From the NCBI RefSeq assembly GCF_020923495.1, contig NZ_CP064048.1, positions 1,877,501 through 1,941,500 on the forward strand: a stretch of DNA of 64,000 nt, written 5' to 3'. This stretch comes from Brevibacillus sedimenti. GTDB lineage: Bacteria > Bacillota > Bacilli > Brevibacillales > Brevibacillaceae. Shown here piece after piece: positions 1,258-57,654 of the stretch; position 1 is the first letter of the stretch; every line of letters begins with the position of its first letter. The position numbers were made by a program, and so were the translations under genes. A model generated the notes under the pieces. The model saw only the letters and a program-made list of their open reading frames with translations. It ran no database searches and was not told where the DNA came from.

Positions 1258-1333
1258 TCCTCGGTAGCTCAGTCGGTAGAGCAATCGGCTGTTAACCGAT
1301 TGGTCGGGGGTTCGAGTCCCTCCCGAGGAGCCA
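1258..1333 (+). tRNA. tRNA-Asn (GTT)
   Basis: 76-nt cloverleaf with a 7-bp acceptor stem (TCCTCGG/CCGAGGA), anticodon loop CTGTTAA and encoded CCA. It is the first tRNA of the cluster, about 60 nt after the 23S gene. Confidence 0.97.
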
Positions 1334-1340
1334 TTATCCC

Positions 1341-1433
1341 GGATGGATGTCCGAGAGGCCGAAGGAGCACGATTGGAAATCGTGTAGGCGGGGATAACTC
1401 GTCTCGTGGGTTCAAATCCCACTCCATCCGCCA
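1341..1433 (+). tRNA. tRNA-Ser (GGA)
   Basis: 93 nt with the long variable arm typical of serine tRNA. The anticodon loop TGGAAAT gives GGA, the acceptor stem is GGATGGA/TCCATCC, and CCA is encoded. Confidence 0.97.
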
Positions 1434-1437
1434 TCAT

Positions 1438-1514
1438 GGCCCGTTGGTGAAGAGGTTTAACACAGCAGCCTTTCACGCTGTCATTCAGGGGTTCGAATCC
1501 CCTACGGGTCACCA
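1438..1514 (+). tRNA. tRNA-Glu (TTC)
   Basis: 77 nt. The anticodon loop CTTTCAC reads TTC, the acceptor stem is GGCCCGT/ACGGGTC with one G-T pair, and CCA is encoded. It starts 4 nt after tRNA-Ser. Confidence 0.96.
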
Positions 1515-1586
1515 TCTAAATGAAGTGGACCCTGCAAAGCAAACGTGATATGCTTAATAGCATACAGCGGCTTTGCGGGGTGACGT

Positions 1587-1662
1587 GGAGGCTTAGCTCA
1601 GCTGGGAGAGCATCTGCCTTACAAGCAGAGGGTCGGCGGTTCGATCCCGTCAGCCTCCACCA
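1587..1662 (+). tRNA. tRNA-Val (TAC)
   Basis: 76 nt with acceptor stem GGAGGCT/AGCCTCC, anticodon loop CTTACAA and encoded CCA. Confidence 0.97.
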
Positions 1663-1683
1663 TTACAGTAGAATTGTTATCGT

Positions 1684-1760
<77 letters not shown>

Positions 1761-1765
1761 AATCT

Positions 1766-1842
1766 GGAGCTGTGGTGAAGCTGGAGTTCACGCCGGTCTG
1801 TCACACCGGAGGTCGCGGGTTCGAGTCCCGTCAGCTCCGCCA
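1766..1842 (+). tRNA. tRNA-Asp (GTC)
   Basis: 77 nt with acceptor stem GGAGCTG/CAGCTCC, anticodon loop CTGTCAC and encoded CCA. Confidence 0.97.
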
Positions 1843-1857
1843 TTTTCGTTAAGCGAT

Positions 1858-1933
<76 letters not shown>

Positions 1934-1938
1934 TATAC

Positions 1939-2012
1939 AGGGGCATAGTTTAACGGTAGAACGAAGGTCTCCAAAACCTTTGGTGTGGGTTCGATTCCTA
2001 CTGCCCCTGCCA
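1939..2012 (+). tRNA. tRNA-Trp (CCA)
   Basis: 74 nt with acceptor stem AGGGGCA/TGCCCCT, anticodon loop CTCCAAA and encoded CCA. Confidence 0.97.
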
Positions 2013-2018
2013 TTGCGT

Positions 2019-2095
2019 GGCGGTCGTGGCGAAGTGGCTAACGCATCGGATTGTGGCTCCGACATTCGTGGGTTCGATTCCCATCGATCGCCCCA
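2019..2095 (+). tRNA. tRNA-His (GTG)
   Basis: 77 nt. The anticodon loop TTGTGGC reads GTG. The gene encodes the extra 5' G(-1) opposite C73, the histidine identity element; the acceptor stem is GCGGTCG/CGATCGC and CCA is encoded. Confidence 0.96.
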
Positions 2096-2110
2096 TTTTT
2101 AATCTCATAT

Positions 2111-2185
2111 TGGGGCATAGCCAAGCGGTAAGGCAACGGACTTTGACTCCGTCATTCCTAGGTTCGAATCCTAGTGCCCCAGCCA
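2111..2185 (+). tRNA. tRNA-Gln (TTG)
   Basis: 75 nt with acceptor stem TGGGGCA/TGCCCCA, anticodon loop CTTTGAC and encoded CCA. Confidence 0.97.
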
Positions 2186-2190
2186 TTTAT

Positions 2191-2266
2191 GCGGACGTAG
2201 CTCAATTGGTAGAGCGTCGCCTTGCCAAGGCGAAGGTCGCGGGTTCGAGACCCGTCGTCCGCTCCA
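2191..2266 (+). tRNA. tRNA-Gly (GCC)
   Basis: 76 nt with acceptor stem GCGGACG/CGTCCGC, anticodon loop TTGCCAA and encoded CCA. Confidence 0.97.
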
Positions 2267-2334
2267 TTTGTCTCCTCGATAGGCTTTGGGCGGAACATGG
2301 TCAGCCCATGCCGAATATAAATAAAACAGAACAT

Positions 2335-2409
2335 GGAGGCATAGCCAAGTGGTAAGGCACGGGTCTGCAAAACCCTTATTCCCCGGTTCGAATCCGGGTG
2401 CCTCCTCCA
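2335..2409 (+). tRNA. tRNA-Cys (GCA)
   Basis: 75 nt with acceptor stem GGAGGCA/TGCCTCC, anticodon loop CTGCAAA and encoded CCA. Confidence 0.97.
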
Positions 2410-2416
2410 TAAACGT

Positions 2417-2499
2417 GCCGGTATGGCGGAATTGGCAGACGCGCGCGACTCAAAATCGTGAGGGAAACCGTGGGGGTTCAAGTCCCTCTACCGGCACCA
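2417..2499 (+). tRNA. tRNA-Leu (CAA)
   Basis: 83 nt with a long variable arm. The anticodon loop CTCAAAA reads CAA, the acceptor stem is GCCGGTA/TACCGGC and CCA is encoded. It is the last tRNA before the operon terminator. Confidence 0.97.
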
Positions 2500-33418: not shown

Positions 33419-33812
33419 CAGCTTTGGTTCCTTTCCTTGAGCGATGGCCCCTCGCAGGGTCGTTTTTGCTATGGTACAGATTTTATTATGGCACAGACAG
33501 TTGACCGGCGTCCGTGACAGCTGTGTGTCATGTTCGGGAGGGCTGGGAAAAACCTGTCTGCCCGGCTCCAGGCGCTTTGGAAATGGGTACCGCATACACA
33601 ACGGGCCGCTCTTCCTCGGCAGCTCATGCGTTTGCGACCAATGCGACGAGGGACAAGTCTACAAAAAAACGGCCTAATAGCGAGATTTATGGAAGAGTAT
33701 GGAGAAAACGAATTGTAATGTGGGAAATATCCTCATTTTTAGTGAAAGTCGGGAAAAATCGCTGAAATCCACGGTTGCCAGGAAGTTATCATAATTTTAC
33801 CATATGAATTGT

Positions 33813-33839
33813 TAGCACTCACACCAATCGAGTGCTAAC
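33813..33839. promoter_or_regulatory. CIRCE operator (HrcA binding site)
   Basis: TTAGCACTC and GAGTGCTAA are separated by exactly 9 nt, a perfect match to the CIRCE consensus for the heat-shock repressor HrcA. No groES, groEL, dnaK or hrcA gene is near. The next gene on the plus strand starts 241 nt downstream; on the minus strand the next is about 395 nt away. No clear sigma-A promoter is visible beside it. Confidence 0.92.
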
Positions 33840-33957
33840 AGTAGTGGTGCGACAAGCGTGAAGAACACAGGCTTCAGCCGGTTCGACGCCGCACGTTACC
33901 GTTGTCTTTCCAGAACCCATACGGCACATCGCTGTTAGTTCCTGAGTGCTGTGTAAC

Positions 33958-34054
33958 AAAAAAGAAGATTGTTCATAAATGGAAATTTTTTATTTCTCAT
34001 TTTTCCAAATGAAGGTAAAAGATTTCGTTTATGTGCAAGCTTCTTTTTTATTTT
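33958..34054 (+). other. Long imperfect hairpin with U-rich tail
   Basis: Arms AAGAAG/CTTCTT, TTG/CAA, CATAAA/TTTATG and TGGAAA/TTTCCA nest in order with small internal loops, and the 3' arm runs into TTTTTTATTTTC. It reads like a terminator or the end of a short RNA that could start near the CIRCE element, just before the sugar nucleotidyltransferase gene. The rest of 33419-33957 holds no gene I can support. Confidence 0.5.
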
Positions 34055-34079
34055 CTCAAAAAAGGGAGGATGATGACTC

Positions 34080-35123
34080 GTGAAGGCATTGCTGTTGGCG
34101 GGTGGTTTGGGCACCCGGCTGAGACCGCTGACGGAAAATCTGGCAAAACCAATGGCTTTGGTGGGAAACCGCCCGTGGCTGGAGCATCTCATCGTTCACC
34201 TCAAACAGCAGGGAATCGTCGATTTTGTGATTGCCGTCAAGCATTATCCGGAAATGATTCAACGGTACTTTGGCGACGGACAGGCGTGGGGCGTCAACAT
34301 CGAATACGCCGTGGAAAAAAAACTGTTGGGCACGGCAGGGGCGATCAAAAACGCGGAAACACTGCTGAGCGACCGTTTTTTGGCGGTCAATGCGGACATC
34401 GTTCACCAGGTCTCGCTGCTCCCGCTGCTGGACTTCCACGTGAAGCACAAGGGAGGCGTCACGATCGGGCTGACCGAGGTGGATGACCCGTCGCAGTTCG
34501 GCGTGGTGGAACAGCGTGACACCGGGGAAATTATCCGCTTCGTGGAAAAGCCGGACAAGGAGTCGGCGCCGTCCAACCGGATTAACGCCGGTATCTACGT
34601 GATGGAAAAAGAGGTGCTGAAGTGGATACCGCAGGGACGGGAAGTTTCGATCGAACGGGAGACGTTCCCGCTGCTGATCGAACGGAACGTGGGGGTCTAC
34701 GGCACGTTGATCGACGGCTACTGGATGGATCTGGGGACGAAAAACCGTTACCGGCAGGTGCACTGGGACCTCTTGGACCGCAAGCTGTCCCTGCCGCTGC
34801 GAGAAAAAGAACACGGCACGGGCATCCTGATCGGGGAGGAGAGCGAGGTCGCCCAAGGCGTGCTGATCGTGCCGCCGGTGCTGATCGGCCGGCGGGTAAA
34901 AATCGGCGAGCGGAGCGTGATTGGACCGTATGCGGTGATCGGCGACGGCTGCGAACTGGGCAAGGGCGTCCGCTGCTCGGAAACGATCATGTGGAACGGC
35001 TGCAAGGTGCGTGACGCGGCCCAGTTGAAAAACTGCATCATTGGATACGGATTGGAGCTGGAAGCCAGCCACATATTGCATGAAGCGGTGATGAACCGGA
35101 CAGCGGGAGGAGGACAAGGATGA
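34080..35123 (+). CDS. Sugar-phosphate nucleotidyltransferase (mannose-1-phosphate guanylyltransferase-like)
   Basis: Makes a nucleotide-activated sugar from a sugar-1-phosphate. It is 347 residues: an N-terminal nucleotidyltransferase domain with ALLLAGGLGTRLRPLTENLAKP and EYAVEKKLLGTAGAI, and a C-terminal left-handed beta-helix (GVLIVPPVLIGRRVKIGERS). The layout matches GMPPB/ManC-like enzymes. The neighbouring phosphomannomutase and mannose-6-phosphate isomerase point to GDP-mannose, which is inference. The start is GTG 34080 behind GGGAGG. The stop overlaps the GT4 start (ATGA). Confidence 0.85.
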   Translation: MKALLLAGGLGTRLRPLTENLAKPMALVGNRPWLEHLIVHLKQQGIVDFVIAVKHYPEMIQRYFGDGQAWGVNIEYAVEKKLLGTAGAIKNAETLLSDRFLAVNADIVHQVSLLPLLDFHVKHKGGVTIGLTEVDDPSQFGVVEQRDTGEIIRFVEKPDKESAPSNRINAGIYVMEKEVLKWIPQGREVSIERETFPLLIERNVGVYGTLIDGYWMDLGTKNRYRQVHWDLLDRKLSLPLREKEHGTGILIGEESEVAQGVLIVPPVLIGRRVKIGERSVIGPYAVIGDGCELGKGVRCSETIMWNGCKVRDAAQLKNCIIGYGLELEASHILHEAVMNRTAGGGQG

Positions 35124-36316
35124 TCCAGGTGGCTTACATGAGCACGTACGTTCCGAAAAGGTGCGGACTGGCGACGTATACCCATCACCTGCGGCATTAC
35201 GTGAAACAGGCGAACCTGTGGAACGCAGCGGACCCGGTGATCGTGATGACCGACGGGGATGAACAGGAGTACGGGAACGATCAGGCGCTGTGGCCGCTTG
35301 CCAAACACGACAGGGAGGCGTATCGGGCGATGGCGCAGAGAGTGAACGCGAGCGGCGTGTCGGTCGTCTCCCTGCAGCATGAGTTTGGCATTTTTGGCGG
35401 GGAAGCAGGGGCGTATGTGCTGGACTTTGTACGCGAGCTGAAAAAACCGCTGGTCACGACCTTCCACACCGTGTTTGCCTCGCCTAAGGAACCGTACCGG
35501 TCGATTCAGCGGGAGATTGCCGAACGGAGCGATCGGATCGTCGTAATGAATCGCCGGGCCGTCGGCTATCTGCGGCAGTCGTTCGGGATTCCGGAAGCGA
35601 AAATCGCGTTTATCCCGCACGGCACCCCCGTCCCCGACCCGCAGCAGCGGGAGGCTGTTCGGCAGCGGTTGAACTGGGCGGATAAAAAAGTCGTGATGAC
35701 GTTTGGCCTGCTCAGCCGCGGAAAAGGGTTGGAACTGATTTTGGAGGCGCTGCCGCAAGCGGTCAAGGATGTCCCCAACCTGCTCTACGCGGTGGTCGGC
35801 CAAACCCATCCGGAAGTGAAGAAACGGGAAGGAGAAGCGTACCGGGAGGAGCTGATGGAGCTGATCCGGCGAAACCGCCTGGAACGCCATGTGGTGATGA
35901 TCGACCGGTACGTGGACGAAGCGGAACTGGTCCAATTTCTGACGGCGTGCGATTTGTACGTCACCCCTTACCCGGGAATGGAGCAGATCACCAGCGGCAC
36001 GCTGGCCTATGCCGTCGGGCTGGGACGTCCGGTGTTGAGCACGCCGTACAGCTATGCCCAGGATTTGCTGGAGGGCTGCGACGAGCTGCTGATTCCGTAT
36101 GGCGAGCCCGACCGGTGGGCGGAAAAAATCGCGTCGCTCTTGCGTGACGACAGCCTGAGGCGGGACTGGGAGGCAAAGATCGGCCGCGTCGGCTCCGCCA
36201 TGCACTGGCCGCAGATCGGCAAGCGCTGCGCTTCCCTGTTTGCCACCCTCTCCAAACAGCCCGGCAGCACGTTTGAACAGACGGAGGGGACACCCGTTGC
36301 GGCCCTTTCCCGTTAG
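35120..36316 (+). CDS. GT4-family glycosyltransferase
   Basis: A cytoplasmic retaining glycosyltransferase with two Rossmann-like domains, 398 residues. The N-terminal STYVPKRCGLATYTHHL resembles the PPRxCGIAT type of GT4. The C-terminal donor-binding region has TFGLLSRGKGLELILEAL and VTPYPGMEQITSGTLAYAVG, with the family Glu in the latter. Given the mannose genes around it, the donor may be GDP-mannose; the acceptor is unknown. It overlaps its neighbours by 4 nt upstream and 20 nt downstream, so all are translated together. Confidence 0.87.
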   Translation: MIQVAYMSTYVPKRCGLATYTHHLRHYVKQANLWNAADPVIVMTDGDEQEYGNDQALWPLAKHDREAYRAMAQRVNASGVSVVSLQHEFGIFGGEAGAYVLDFVRELKKPLVTTFHTVFASPKEPYRSIQREIAERSDRIVVMNRRAVGYLRQSFGIPEAKIAFIPHGTPVPDPQQREAVRQRLNWADKKVVMTFGLLSRGKGLELILEALPQAVKDVPNLLYAVVGQTHPEVKKREGEAYREELMELIRRNRLERHVVMIDRYVDEAELVQFLTACDLYVTPYPGMEQITSGTLAYAVGLGRPVLSTPYSYAQDLLEGCDELLIPYGEPDRWAEKIASLLRDDSLRRDWEAKIGRVGSAMHWPQIGKRCASLFATLSKQPGSTFEQTEGTPVAALSR

Positions 36317-37364
36317 CTTTCGACACCTGGAGAGAATGACCGATGACACCGGACTGTTGGAGCACTGTCTCGGAAACATCCCGCGCCGCCGGGAGGGCTA
36401 TACGACCGATGACAACGCCAGAGCGCTGTGGGCGTGTGCCGTTTGGCGGCAGCATGCGAACCGGACAGGCGACCGCGATCTGCTGGCGACCCTTGACCGC
36501 CTGATCGACCGCTATCTCGGGTTTCTTCTGTGGGTTCAGCAGGAGGATGGCAGCTTTCACAACAACATCGGCTACGACCGCAGGCCGGAACCGGAGAAGC
36601 CGTCCGACGACTGTCTCGGACGTGCGCTGTGGGCGTGCGCGGTCGCATCGGCGTCGCTTCCCGACAGCGGCCGGCGGTTTGTCGCCTCCCAACTGCTTGC
36701 CAAAGGGCTGCCGCGGGCGACGGCGATGAAGTTTCCGCGCGGATGGGCCTTCGCGCTGGCAGCGTGCAGCTTTTTGCTCAGGAACGGCAGCGGTTATGCA
36801 AATTCCGCCGTCTGCATGGAGCTGATCGAGCTGTTTGAAGAACGGCTGGTCCGGCTGTACCGGGAGGCGTCCGGAGAAGGTTGGCATTGGTTCGAACCGG
36901 TGATGACCTACGGAAACGGCGTGCTGCCGTGGGCGCTGTTTTCCGCCTGCCGCGTGACGAAGCGGGAGGAGACGCTGTCCATTGCCAAAGAGAGTCTCGA
37001 TTTTCTGATCGCCAGGATGACCGGACAAAACGGCGTGATTCGCCCCATCGGCAACCGGGGCTGGTGCACGCCGCAGTCCCGTAGCGACTGGGATCAGCAG
37101 CCGTTGGAAGTAATGAAACTGGCGCTCGCTTCGGCGGAAGCCCATGCGGTACTGGCTGATCCTATGTACTGGCAAACAGTGGAAAAATGCCGGGCGTGGT
37201 TTTACGGCGGCAACGATGGAGCCGTGCCGATGGCAGATGCGGCGGAAGGCAGCTGCTGCGACGGACTGACACCAAACGGAGCCAATCTGAATCGGGGAGC
37301 GGAATCGACCCTGTCCTACTTGCTGACGGAAGCGATTTATCACAATGCGGTGACTGGAGGTTGA
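36297..37364 (+). CDS. (Alpha/alpha)-barrel-type protein associated with GT4
   Basis: A predicted cytoplasmic helical protein of 355 residues. Conserved segments are FRHLERMTDDTGLLEH, GYTTDDNARALWA, DDCLGRALWACAVASASLP and the C-terminal NRGAESTLSYLLTEA; the repeated aromatic-helix pattern suggests an (alpha/alpha)6-barrel of glycosidase style. I recall similar domains fused to GT4 transferases in other bacteria. The function is not established. I chose TTG 36297 with GGAGGGG 7 nt upstream because ATG 36336 would cut into the conserved MTDDTG motif. Confidence 0.7.
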   Translation: MRPFPVSFRHLERMTDDTGLLEHCLGNIPRRREGYTTDDNARALWACAVWRQHANRTGDRDLLATLDRLIDRYLGFLLWVQQEDGSFHNNIGYDRRPEPEKPSDDCLGRALWACAVASASLPDSGRRFVASQLLAKGLPRATAMKFPRGWAFALAACSFLLRNGSGYANSAVCMELIELFEERLVRLYREASGEGWHWFEPVMTYGNGVLPWALFSACRVTKREETLSIAKESLDFLIARMTGQNGVIRPIGNRGWCTPQSRSDWDQQPLEVMKLALASAEAHAVLADPMYWQTVEKCRAWFYGGNDGAVPMADAAEGSCCDGLTPNGANLNRGAESTLSYLLTEAIYHNAVTGG

Positions 37365-37369
37365 TGCAT

Positions 37370-38791
37370 ATGGACGTTACGGCTGCACACGGCATTCACA
37401 TCCCGTCCCACGTTTTCCGGGAGTACGACATCAGGGGCAGAGCCGGGAAAGAGATTCATCCGGCGTTTGCCTGGCTCCTGGGGAGAGCGTTTGGCCGAAA
37501 GCTGAAGGCGGCCGGGCTGGACAAGGCGGTCGTGGGGAGGGATAACCGGAAATCCTCGCCGGAGCTGCAAACCGCTCTGATGGCCGGGCTACTTCGCTCG
37601 GACATCCGCGTCGTCGATATCGGTGAGGTGACGACACCGATGTTTTACTACAGCCTGGAGCATCTGGACATTCCTTCCGGGCTGATCGTGACGGCAAGCC
37701 ACAACCCCGGTGACGAGAACGGCTTTAAAATTGCCATGGACAAGACCACCATCTACGGCGAGGCGATTCAGGACCTGTACAACACCATGCGCGCGCTGCT
37801 CGCCGAGGAAGGCGTGCCGCACCAACCTTTCTCCCTACAGGAAGGAGTGGAGCGGGTGGACATCGAACAGCCCTATCTGGCGATGCTCAGGGAAAAAATT
37901 GTCCTTGGACCGCGCAAAGTGAAGGTGGTGGCGGACTGCGGCAACGGCACCCCCTCGCCGTTCGTGCCGAAAGCGCTGGTCCAGTGGGGCTGCGAAGTGG
38001 TTCCGCTCTACTGTGAATCCGATCCCAATTTCCCTCATCATCACCCCGATCCGGTCGACCCGAAAAACCTGCAGGACTTGATTCGCAAGGTGCGCGAGGA
38101 AAAAGCCGACCTCGGGGTGGCCTTCGACGGCGATGGCGACCGCCTGGGTGTCGTCGACGAGCAGGGCAATATCCTGTGGGGCGATCAGCTGATGATTTTG
38201 TTCTGGCGGGAGATCCTGCCGAAACATCCCGGATGCCAGGCGCTGGTGGAAGTAAAATGCTCGCGGGCACTGGTGGAAGAAATCGAGAAGCTGGGCGGAG
38301 TGCCCGTGTTTCACCGCACCGGCCATTCCCATATCAAAGCCTCGATGAAACGGCTGAACGTGCCGTTTACCGGTGAAATGTCCGGCCACATCTTCTTCAA
38401 GGACGAGTATTTCGGCTTTGACGACGCGCTCTACGCGGCGGGGCGGCTGCTTCGCATCTTGACCAACAGCGACAAGCCGCTGTCAGCGTTGTTTGCCGAC
38501 ATTCCCCGCTACCACGCCACGCCGGAGACGAGAGTCCCCTGCGAGGAAAGCAAAAAGCGGACCATCCTGGACAAGGTCAAACAGTATTTCCGGCCCGAGC
38601 GCGAGATTATTGACGTGGACGGCGCGAGGGTGATCTTCCCGAACGGCTGGGGACTGATCCGCGCCTCCAACACGCAGCCGATTTTGGTCCTGCGGGCGGA
38701 GGCGGAATCGGCGGAAGGGCTGGCCGAGATCAAACGGGAGATCGAGAAGTCTCTTGCGTTTGCCGATTCCGCGCTGACGGTGGACTGGTAA
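37370..38791 (+). CDS. Phosphomannomutase/phosphoglucomutase
   Basis: Interconverts hexose-6- and hexose-1-phosphate. It is 473 residues, AlgC-type. The catalytic Ser is in GLIVTASHNPGDENGFK, the metal loop is AFDGDGDRLGVVDE, the sugar-binding loop is FTGEMSGHIFFKDE, and the phosphate-binding loop is IRASNTQPILVLR. In this cluster it should supply mannose-1-phosphate to the nucleotidyltransferase, though such enzymes often accept glucose as well. ATG 37370 lies 9 nt after GGAGG; ATG 37364 is too close to that site. Confidence 0.92.
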   Translation: MDVTAAHGIHIPSHVFREYDIRGRAGKEIHPAFAWLLGRAFGRKLKAAGLDKAVVGRDNRKSSPELQTALMAGLLRSDIRVVDIGEVTTPMFYYSLEHLDIPSGLIVTASHNPGDENGFKIAMDKTTIYGEAIQDLYNTMRALLAEEGVPHQPFSLQEGVERVDIEQPYLAMLREKIVLGPRKVKVVADCGNGTPSPFVPKALVQWGCEVVPLYCESDPNFPHHHPDPVDPKNLQDLIRKVREEKADLGVAFDGDGDRLGVVDEQGNILWGDQLMILFWREILPKHPGCQALVEVKCSRALVEEIEKLGGVPVFHRTGHSHIKASMKRLNVPFTGEMSGHIFFKDEYFGFDDALYAAGRLLRILTNSDKPLSALFADIPRYHATPETRVPCEESKKRTILDKVKQYFRPEREIIDVDGARVIFPNGWGLIRASNTQPILVLRAEAESAEGLAEIKREIEKSLAFADSALTVDW

Positions 38792-38887
38792 CCTCGAAAC
38801 AGCGGACTCGTGTACCCGTACCATCTTGTCGTGATTCGCTGGTAGTGCCTGTTTGCATACTGAGATCAACCGGGGTGAGTGAGGAAA

Positions 38888-39871
38888 ATGAACGCGTATC
38901 CGTTACTGTTTTCACCGATGTATCATCAACGGATTTGGGGCGGCAATCGCCTGCGTACATTATTCGGCTATCCCATTCCCAGTGAGCAGACGGGTGAGGC
39001 GTGGGTCATATCCGATCACCCGAAAGGCAGAACCACGATCAGAAACGGCGTCTATCGCGGAAAGACGATCAGCGAACTGCTGGCGGAACAGCCCGATTGG
39101 TTTGCGCCGAAGCGTCCGGACCGCTTTCCGCTGTTGGTGAAACTGTTGGACGCCAACGACTCGTTATCCGTACAGGTACATCCCGACGACCGCTTTGCCC
39201 ATGTCCATGAGAACGGCGAACTGGGAAAGGCGGAATGCTGGTACGTCGTGCACGCCGAACCTGGAGCAGAAATCGTGTACGGCCATACCGCCAGGACGCG
39301 GGAGGAACTGGCGGAGATGGTGAAGGCCAGCCGCTGGGACGACCTGTTGGTGCGAGTCCCGGTGCGGACCGGCGACTTCTTCTACATTCCGCACGGCACG
39401 CTCCACGCGCTGGGCAAAGGCATTGTCGTCCTGGAAATTCAGCAAAACTCAGACGCCACATACCGCGCCTACGACTACGACCGCGTCGACCAGTCCGGAC
39501 GGAAGCGCGAACTGCACATCGACAAGGTGCTGCAGGTAACCAATGTGCCGAACAAGCCGGCACAGATCCGGGCAAAGACAGCAGGCAGCCGCTTCCTGCA
39601 GGTGAACCACTACCTGGACAGCCCGTTTTTCACGGTAGAAAAATGGACGCTGCACGGCTCGCGCGAAGAAGAGTCCGGGGACCGGTTCTCCCTCGTGTCC
39701 GTTCTCGCCGGATCAGCCCTGCTGGAATGGAGCGGCGGTGAGCTTACGGTGAAAAAAGGGGATCACCTGCTGTTACCGAGAACATTGGGCAGGTACAGAC
39801 TGGCGGGCGACATGGAAGCGATAGTCTCCTTCCCGCCGGGACAGGCGGCCACGCTGCGAAAAGCGGGCTGA
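38888..39871 (+). CDS. manA: Mannose-6-phosphate isomerase, class I
   Basis: A zinc enzyme that links fructose-6-phosphate to mannose-6-phosphate. It is 327 residues. Zinc-site motifs are LSVQVHPDDRFA near residue 95 and the later IPHGTLHALGKGIVVLEIQQ. Together with the mutase and nucleotidyltransferase it completes a route from fructose-6-phosphate to an activated mannose. It follows the mutase by about 95 nt and is the last gene before a terminator. ATG 38888 is preceded by GGTGAGTGAGG. Confidence 0.92.
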   Translation: MNAYPLLFSPMYHQRIWGGNRLRTLFGYPIPSEQTGEAWVISDHPKGRTTIRNGVYRGKTISELLAEQPDWFAPKRPDRFPLLVKLLDANDSLSVQVHPDDRFAHVHENGELGKAECWYVVHAEPGAEIVYGHTARTREELAEMVKASRWDDLLVRVPVRTGDFFYIPHGTLHALGKGIVVLEIQQNSDATYRAYDYDRVDQSGRKRELHIDKVLQVTNVPNKPAQIRAKTAGSRFLQVNHYLDSPFFTVEKWTLHGSREEESGDRFSLVSVLAGSALLEWSGGELTVKKGDHLLLPRTLGRYRLAGDMEAIVSFPPGQAATLRKAG

Positions 39872-53777: not shown

Positions 53778-54121
53778 TGCTTACCTCCTTCCTTGCACCA
53801 GCGAAGGAGCCGACAGATGCATAGCATACCACGGCATTGAAGAGGAAGAGTAAGAGAGGGCGCTGACGTTCAGAGAGCCTGCCTGCAAGCTGAGAGGGGG
53901 GCCGTCATCTCTCTTTGAAGCCGCCTTGGAGCTCCTGCTTTTGAAATTGCGAGTAGAAAGCAGCGGATCAGCCCCCGTTATCGGGTGAAAGTCTGTGCAG
54001 GACTTTCCGAGTCTGCTTTTCGTGAGGAGAGCAGAAAAGCTGAGTGGTACCGCGATTCCGTCGCCTCAGCAATCGAATCTTTGGGACGAATGTTCCGGGT
54101 TCGGTTGCGGGGCGATTTTTT
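53778..54121 (+). promoter_or_regulatory. T-box leader, probably alanine-specific
   Basis: The AGTA box at 53849-53852 and the helix AAGAGAG/CTCTCTT lead to TGAA followed by the likely specifier codon GCC (Ala) at 53920-53922. The T-box core GAGTGGTACCGCG is at 54042-54054. Its antiterminator (GCTGAG/CTCAGC) competes with a strong terminator: TCGCCTC and GCAATCGAA (from 54061) pair with TTCGGTTGC and GGGGCGA, ending in six Ts at 54121. Uncharged tRNA should allow read-through into alaR-alaT. A CCG (Pro) reading one base later is less likely. Confidence 0.9.
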
Positions 54122-57428: not shown

Positions 57429-57458
57429 CTGTTACATCCCCACCAAGCCTTCGTTGAA

Positions 57459-57636
57459 GATAGCACATCACGTTTGCCCGGCTCGCAAACGTGACAGTTC
57501 TGCCCCTTTCGAGTACAGCCCCAGCCCGTGTGCCCAGAGAATGCACAGCGGACTTCGGCGGCTTTTCCCTCCTCTGGAGTCATCGATCTTCTCTGGATCT
57601 CGTGCCAGAATCATATAAAAGCCGCGACCTCTATCC
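57459..57636 (-). promoter_or_regulatory. Lysine riboswitch (L-box)
   Basis: On the minus strand the aptamer begins GATAGAGGTCGCGG and ends with CTATC, which closes P1. Conserved L-box blocks follow in order: AGAGGTCGCGG, GAGGAGGGAAAAGCCGCCGAA, then ACGGGCTGGGGCTGT and GGCAGAACTGTCA. Lysine binding should favour the downstream terminator and switch off lysP. Confidence 0.92.
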
Positions 57637-57654
57637 CCATCGCATGTGATGAGG

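What the first reader, a model, noticed from the sequence alone, without database searches (positions are those of the whole stretch)
33813..34079. Orphan CIRCE element followed by a structured RNA and a mannose cluster
A perfect HrcA operator stands 241 bp before a GDP-mannose-type gene cluster, with no chaperone gene nearby. Between them is a nested hairpin with a U-rich tail. Either HrcA controls a short heat-shock RNA ending near 34054, or it controls the mannose pathway with the hairpin as attenuator. Heat-induced mannosyl solutes are known in some thermophiles, which makes the second option attractive.
Basis: partly seen in the sequence, partly recalled or inferred. Interest (0 to 1): 0.7.

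Follow-up and report, generated by a model that had tools for sequence, protein, structure and literature searches.

The report
Heat-shock operator controlling a mannose operon
The switch that normally turns on protein-repair genes during heat sits, in this bacterium and in dozens of relatives from many families, in front of a set of genes that builds a mannose product, which suggests that a sugar-making pathway is an overlooked part of the bacterial heat-shock response.

Summary
Observation confirmed: a perfect CIRCE lies at 33812-33838, overlapping the predicted transcription start of an operon manC-GT4-P374-PMM-manA. It is one of only three CIRCE sites in the genome; the others precede groESL and hrcA. 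It is not a relic. Among 398 sampled Bacilli genomes, 55 carry the operon's marker gene P374. Counting one further genome, 43 of 56 loci have a CIRCE-like site (at most 3 of 18 mismatches) within 600 bp upstream of the operon, in 11 families and 22 genera; the 466,618 bases of those loci hold no other such site. Nine further loci came from a named collection. The operators differ from the chaperone type: mismatches fall in the promoter-proximal arm (65 versus 7), typically TTAGCAGCC-N9-GAGTGCTAA. The hairpin (33956-34053) is a terminator-like leader element found in 8 loci, once per genome and only before this operon; most other families lack it. Best reading: HrcA represses the operon and heat or misfolded protein derepresses it; in this lineage the hairpin probably attenuates it. 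The product, probably a cytoplasmic mannoside or mannan, and any thermoprotection are inferred. Nothing was tested for expression. The short-RNA option is disfavoured.

The parts
33775..33803 (+). predicted sigma-A promoter TTGCCA-17-TACCAT
   Evidence: consensus scan; conserved in the sister species, and similar -10 boxes directly precede CIRCE in the other loci by eye
33812..33838 (+). CIRCE, HrcA operator, perfect 9-9-9
   Evidence: conserved upstream of the orthologous operon
33839..33955 (+). variable leader segment, conserved only in the sister species G022
33956..34053 (+). terminator-like leader hairpin (GAAG...CUUCUUUUUU), proposed attenuator
   Evidence: model R1 built without the window finds it at E 8.9e-12; one place per genome in 7 of 200 genomes, each at this operon
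34064..34070 (+). Shine-Dalgarno GGGAGGA
   Evidence: sequence
34080..35123 (+). manC-like mannose-1-phosphate guanylyltransferase (NTP_transferase plus hexapeptide repeats)
   Evidence: Pfam PF00483; best NCBIfam model man1P_GTase_Rv at 268 bits, below its cut-off of 440
35120..36316 (+). GT4-type glycosyltransferase
   Evidence: Pfam PF13692, PF00534, PF13439
36240..37364 (+). P374, uncharacterised (alpha/alpha)6-barrel protein (true start probably near 36312)
   Evidence: no Pfam, NCBIfam or PDB sequence hit; AlphaFold2 pLDDT 95.3; Foldseek to epimerase, GH9 and GH76 folds
37325..38791 (+). phosphomannomutase/phosphoglucomutase (start uncertain; the listed ORF begins at 37187)
   Evidence: Pfam PF02878-PF02880, PF00408
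38879..39871 (+). manA, mannose-6-phosphate isomerase class I
   Evidence: TIGR00218 above cut-off

Best explanation
The site is a working HrcA operator at the promoter of a five-gene operon that turns fructose-6-phosphate into GDP-mannose (ManA, PMM, ManC) and uses it through a GT4 glycosyltransferase and a partner barrel protein (P374). Under non-stress conditions HrcA sits on CIRCE at the transcription start and represses. When heat or misfolded protein occupies GroEL, HrcA loses activity and the operon is induced together with groESL and hrcA-dnaK. In this lineage the transcript then meets a long A/U-rich hairpin with a U-tract just before the first gene, which most likely acts as a partial or regulated terminator; its signal is unknown. 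Shown: the operator, its conserved position, and the hairpin's conservation and specificity. Inferred: HrcA binding, heat induction, termination, and the product (probably a cytoplasmic mannoside or mannan).
For: One of only three CIRCE sites in the genome. A site with at most 3 of 18 mismatches lies within 600 bp upstream of the operon in 43 of 56 loci (9 perfect, 5 with one, 20 with two, 9 with three mismatches; 1 locus has four and 12 have none). No other such site occurs in the 466,618 bases of those loci. In the named collection 16 of 80 loci have it, all 16 among the 26 Bacillota loci; 9 of the 16 are additional to the 56. By eye the site follows the -10 box in most loci. Hairpin: found in 8 loci; model R1, built from the six loci other than window and G022, finds one place per genome in 7 of 200 genomes, each at the operon. 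GroEL dependence of HrcA is stated in PMC3842655 (passages).
Against: No expression or binding data. 12 of 56 loci have no site, and all 7 Cohnella loci lack it. Many sites have a degraded left arm and could bind HrcA weakly. The hairpin is A/U-rich and is absent from most other families. RNAalifold on the MAFFT alignment gives only 4 of 30 pairs with double changes and a slightly unfavourable covariation term (+1.11), partly because the 3' arm is misaligned by one or two bases. The standard terminator scan did not call the hairpin, since its loop and GC limits exclude it; one of six shuffles of the window leader also scored -27.9 in my own scan.
Confidence: 0.85

Rival explanations
1. HrcA controls a short stand-alone heat-shock RNA that ends at the hairpin near 34054; the mannose operon has its own regulation.
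For: The hairpin ends in a U-rich stretch and is specific in position.
Against: Only CIRCE and the hairpin are conserved; the segment between them is not, apart from the sister species, and in G031 it is about 30 nt. In most families CIRCE precedes the operon without any terminator-like hairpin, so the conserved target of the operator is the operon.
Confidence: 0.06
2. The CIRCE is a relic of a lost groESL, dnaK or htpG operon.
For: Other Brevibacillus-genus genomes have a third CIRCE at htpG, and an htpG search finds none in G000 or G022, so an operon carrying CIRCE was lost or never present in these two.
Against: Perfect or near-perfect sites before the same operon in 11 families cannot be leftovers; the leader is otherwise unalignable between families, so the site is under selection.
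Confidence: 0.02
3. The half-degenerate sites (TTAGCAGCC-N9-GAGTGCTAA) are bound by another regulator, or by HrcA only weakly, so the heat link holds mainly for lineages with perfect sites such as this one.
For: Mismatches are concentrated in the left arm, 65 against 7 (46 against 7 over 34 distinct sequences), in a repeated form rather than at random.
Against: The 9-9-9 geometry, the intact right arm and the position at the start site are kept; perfect and degenerate sites occur before orthologous operons within one family.
Confidence: 0.12
4. The hairpin is not a terminator but a stability element or a protein- or ligand-binding element of the leader, for example a processive-antitermination or riboswitch-like element.
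For: Parts of the primary sequence are nearly invariant (GTTCATA, TTATG..CAA), more than a plain terminator needs.
Against: All eight copies end in CUUCUUUU-type U-tracts directly after the stem.
Confidence: 0.3

Closest known systems
CIRCE/HrcA class I heat-shock regulon (groESL, hrcA-grpE-dnaK-dnaJ)
   Same: Identical operator sequence, geometry and placement at the promoter; found in the same genome before groESL and hrcA.
   Different: The target is a sugar-nucleotide and glycosyltransferase operon without a chaperone; many orthologous operators have a degenerate left arm; an extra leader hairpin is present in three families.
htpG as a third CIRCE target in other Brevibacillus-genus genomes
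   Same: Also one extra HrcA target beside groESL and hrcA; seen in 7 of 7 loci inspected.
   Different: htpG is a chaperone; the search found no htpG in G000 or G022, the two genus members with the mannose operon.
Thermoanaerobacter GDP-mannose/GH130 beta-1,2-mannoside cluster (PMC4264767, passages read)
   Same: Mannose-1-phosphate guanylyltransferase next to a GT4 mannosyltransferase; GT4-P374 relatives in other phyla lie next to GH130.
   Different: That paper proposes salvage of beta-1,2-mannan by GH130 phosphorylases; the window operon has no GH130 and makes mannose-6-phosphate through ManA. HrcA control is not mentioned in the passages read.
Intrinsic-terminator attenuators of Gram-positive leaders
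   Same: Stem directly followed by a U-tract between promoter and first gene.
   Different: Very long, A/U-rich, with conserved internal sequence; no antiterminator or ligand known; no Rfam family reached its threshold.

Membership tests
HrcA/CIRCE regulon | operator TTAGCACTC-N9-GAGTGCTAA | tested here: met
   0 mismatches at 33812-33838
HrcA/CIRCE regulon | operator overlaps the transcription start of a vegetative promoter | tested here: inconclusive
   promoter-like hexamers end 8 bases before CIRCE, conserved in G022; the start site was not mapped
HrcA/CIRCE regulon | hrcA gene with its own CIRCE in the genome | tested here: met
   L003: CIRCE directly before an HrcA-like ORF (identified by reading the sequence, no profile search)
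HrcA/CIRCE regulon | operator conserved before orthologous targets | tested here: met
   43 of 56 loci with at most 3 mismatches
HrcA/CIRCE regulon | HrcA binding and heat-induced derepression | not testable with these tools
   needs EMSA/ChIP and RNA-seq
HrcA/CIRCE regulon | target is a chaperone operon | tested here: not met
   mannose-metabolism genes; customary rather than defining
Intrinsic terminator/attenuator | stable stem-loop followed at once by a U-tract | tested here: met
   8 of 8 copies
Intrinsic terminator/attenuator | GC-rich stem base | tested here: not met
   stem base is GAAG/CUUC within A-U pairs; match GC 0.23
Intrinsic terminator/attenuator | competing antiterminator structure or known signal | not tested
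   no alternative fold was sought systematically; none was evident in the MFE or centroid fold
Known riboswitch or structured RNA | reaches an Rfam gathering score | tested here: not met

The most novel reading that the evidence does not exclude
A previously unrecognised carbohydrate branch of the class I heat-shock response: across heat-adapted Bacillota, HrcA co-regulates chaperones and an operon that makes a cytoplasmic mannoside or (beta-)mannan through GT4 and the uncharacterised P374 family, which protects proteins or membranes during heat; a promoter-proximal, half-degenerate CIRCE sets a lower derepression threshold than for groESL, and a lineage-specific leader RNA adds a second checkpoint.
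Probability: 0.35. Interest if true: 0.85.

Novelty: new variant of a known kind. Interest (0 to 1): 0.7.

Why it matters
The HrcA regulon is taught as a chaperone regulon. A conserved non-chaperone target, kept in 11 families and 22 genera of the sampled Bacilli, would tie protein-folding stress directly to sugar metabolism and would predict a heat-induced mannose product in Geobacillus, Alicyclobacillus and thermophilic Brevibacillus. It gives a testable role for GT4-P374, a pair that also occurs in Bacteroidota, Planctomycetota and archaea (in one frame or adjacent, sometimes beside GH130) and whose P374 half has no Pfam family. The asymmetric operators offer a natural series for testing how HrcA affinity sets induction thresholds.

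Tried and rejected
MITE or mobile-repeat origin of the hairpin: rejected. It is single-copy in its own genome (all other hits E 0.03 or worse), and model R1 finds it only at this operon in 7 of 200 genomes. Known Rfam element: none at gathering score; weak hits to eukaryotic miRNA families (best E 0.0086, far below gathering) reflect a long hairpin.

Terminators as a general feature of these leaders: not supported. In my scan with 6 shuffles per leader many leaders, including Geobacillus and most Alicyclobacillus, have none, and several shuffles score as well as real ones; only the hairpin group, L254, and some Cohnella and Paenibacillus leaders look convincing by eye. In one search the scan picked a different or longer hairpin for L240 and L238 than the conserved one, because it maximises energy.

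Print errors: L252 and L260 were shown in the wrong orientation or at the wrong place; the counts come, where orientation was set by tblastn. 'Shine-Dalgarno sequestration' seen in the MFE was not pursued because the pairing partner is not conserved beyond the sister species.

Literature: searches (HrcA+CIRCE+mannose-1-phosphate, 0 papers; 2; 6; 90, 20 listed; 149, 15 listed; 4; 3; 41, 30 listed; 33, 15 listed) listed no paper whose title or abstract start names HrcA control of a mannose operon. The library is open access only, and regulon databases such as RegPrecise could not be queried, so priority is not proven. Passages were read of PMC12044746, PMC4264767, PMC9218356, PMC3842655, PMC3616900 and PMC13241884; none was read whole.

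Full report
OBSERVATION. The window holds a perfect CIRCE at 33812-33838, the only site with up to three mismatches in 64 kb, with none in 100 shuffles. The 3.93 Mb genome has exactly three such sites. The other two directly precede groES-groEL (L001) and an hrcA-like gene (L003). The third stands 241 bp before the GTG start of a manC-like gene at 34080. A TTGCCA-17-TACCAT promoter-like sequence ends 8 bases before it. Between CIRCE and gene lies a 98-nt hairpin, 33956-34053, z -8.25.

THE OPERON. Five genes in the same direction follow: manC-like NTP transferase (34080-35123), GT4 glycosyltransferase (35120-36316), a protein without any Pfam, NCBIfam or PDB sequence hit ('P374', 36240-37364), a phosphomannomutase/phosphoglucomutase (about 37325-38791) and manA (38879-39871). 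P374 is predicted with high confidence (pLDDT 95.3) as an (alpha/alpha)6 barrel; the best Foldseek matches are a putative exported protein, cellobiose 2-epimerases and other AGE-fold enzymes, and GH9 and GH76 glycosidases. In Bacteroidota and archaeal loci GT4 and P374 lie in one open frame (L152, L168, L183), and GH130, a beta-mannoside phosphorylase family, lies beside them in 3 of the 4 loci where I scanned neighbours for it (L155, L168, L183; not L152). This points to cytoplasmic mannoside or mannan chemistry, by inference.

CONSERVATION OF THE OPERATOR. The orthologous operons of relatives carried CIRCE too, so I measured this. Of 398 class-Bacilli genomes, 55 have P374 at E <= 1e-30. I used the upstream regions of all 55 plus G034 (window). 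A site with at most 3 of 18 mismatches lies within 600 bp upstream of the first operon gene in 43 of 56 loci: 9 perfect, 5 with one, 20 with two, 9 with three. One locus has four mismatches and 12 have no site. By the family and genus labels these 43 fall in 11 families and 22 genera. The 466,618 bases of the 56 loci contain no other site at this threshold. By my arithmetic, about 0.01 sites would be expected by chance in 56 x 600 positions at even base composition. An independent scan of 84,980 named species kept the best 80 of 541 loci. Sixteen of the 80 have a site with at most 3 mismatches, all just upstream of the operon, and all are among the 26 Bacillota loci. None of the other 54 loci (Bacteroidota, Planctomycetota, archaea and others) has one at up to four. 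Named hosts include Parageobacillus thermantarcticus, Geobacillus thermocatenulatus, G. proteiniphilus, Alicyclobacillus species, Thermobacillus xylanilyticus, Paenibacillus and a Sporolactobacillus. Several are thermophiles (recalled), but seven Cohnella loci and Hydrogenibacillus lack the site, so thermophily alone does not predict it.

ASYMMETRY. Over the 43 sites the left arm carries 65 mismatches and the right arm 7 (46 and 7 over 34 distinct sequences). Position 7 is G in 27 and position 8 is C in 24, giving TTAGCAGCC-N9-GAGTGCTAA. I read this as a selected or inherited weaker operator next to the promoter; its effect on HrcA is untested.

THE HAIRPIN. Copies with the same ends (AAGAAG-nn-TGTTCATA ... 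TTATG..CAA..CTTCTTTT) occur before the operon in eight loci: window, G022, G031, G027, G048, G099, G085 and G069, in three families. Each folds into one hairpin of -19.5 to -33.9 kcal/mol. A covariance model from the six copies other than window and G022 finds the window hairpin at 8.9e-12 and, in 200 genomes, one place each in 7 genomes, always at this operon; because the element is palindromic 6 of the 7 also match on the reverse strand. Covariation is modest: 4 of 30 pairs show double changes, with a slightly unfavourable covariation term, on an alignment that misplaces the 3' arm. No Rfam family fits. Most other families keep CIRCE but show no such hairpin. The hairpin is therefore a lineage-specific leader element, most likely an attenuating terminator, and is not needed for the general link.

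MECHANISM. HrcA represses at CIRCE and depends on GroEL; repression is relieved when GroEL is busy with non-native protein (PMC3842655, passages). The simplest reading is that the mannose operon is a class I heat-shock operon. Shown: operator, position, conservation. Inferred: binding, induction, termination, product and benefit.

The mannose-with-attenuator option is largely right; the short-RNA option is disfavoured; the relic idea is refuted. A detail on regulon turnover: in other genomes of the genus the third CIRCE precedes htpG (7 of 7 loci inspected). P374 was not found in any of the 20 other genus members whose rows displays. The htpG search found none in G000, G022 or G009 and found it in the other 22 genus members searched.

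NOVELTY. No paper found in the listed searches describes HrcA control of a mannose operon in its title or abstract start; the library is open access only.

Noticed in passing
L136:5650-5795, L146:5362-5572, L112:5680-5885: Two Paenibacillus loci and G035 (another genus) share a longer conserved leader RNA before the same operon, ending in CTTCTTTTTT. The G035 match is 82% identical over about 119 nt. No Rfam family reached its gathering score for L136. It looks riboswitch-like but is unexplained; in 398 genomes only G035, and a 31-nt piece in G346, matched.
   Followed up: partly
L136, L146, L133, just after CIRCE: Short ORFs with a ribosome-binding site encoding Arg-rich peptides (read by eye), possible leader peptides between CIRCE and manC.
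   Followed up: no
L141, L145, L148: Cohnella loci lack CIRCE but have a strong terminator (GACGCTTCCC...GGGGAGCGTC-T run) in the leader of the same operon.
   Followed up: partly
L252, L253 (Alicyclobacillus kakegawensis-like): A decayed manC start lies between CIRCE and the GT4 gene; operator and downstream genes remain (and for L138).
   Followed up: no
G000 and G022 genomes: The htpG search found nothing in the two genus members that carry the mannose operon, nor in G009; the other 22 genus members searched have htpG, preceded by a one-mismatch CIRCE in all 7 loci inspected.
   Followed up: partly
window 36240-37364: P374 is a widespread protein family without a Pfam or NCBIfam model, an (alpha/alpha)6 barrel that is in one open frame with GT4 in L152, L168 and L183.
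   Followed up: partly
L117, L266, L275: In family f22 a perfect CIRCE lies between manA and manC, about 305 nt before manC; in L117 and L266 it is embedded in a longer palindrome (CCTGTTATTAGCACTC...GAGTGCTAATAACAGG).
   Followed up: no
window 53828-54071 (+), 57453-57641 (-), 1258-2496 (+): A T-box leader, a lysine riboswitch, and a run of 13 tRNA genes after the large-subunit rRNA; ordinary.
   Followed up: no
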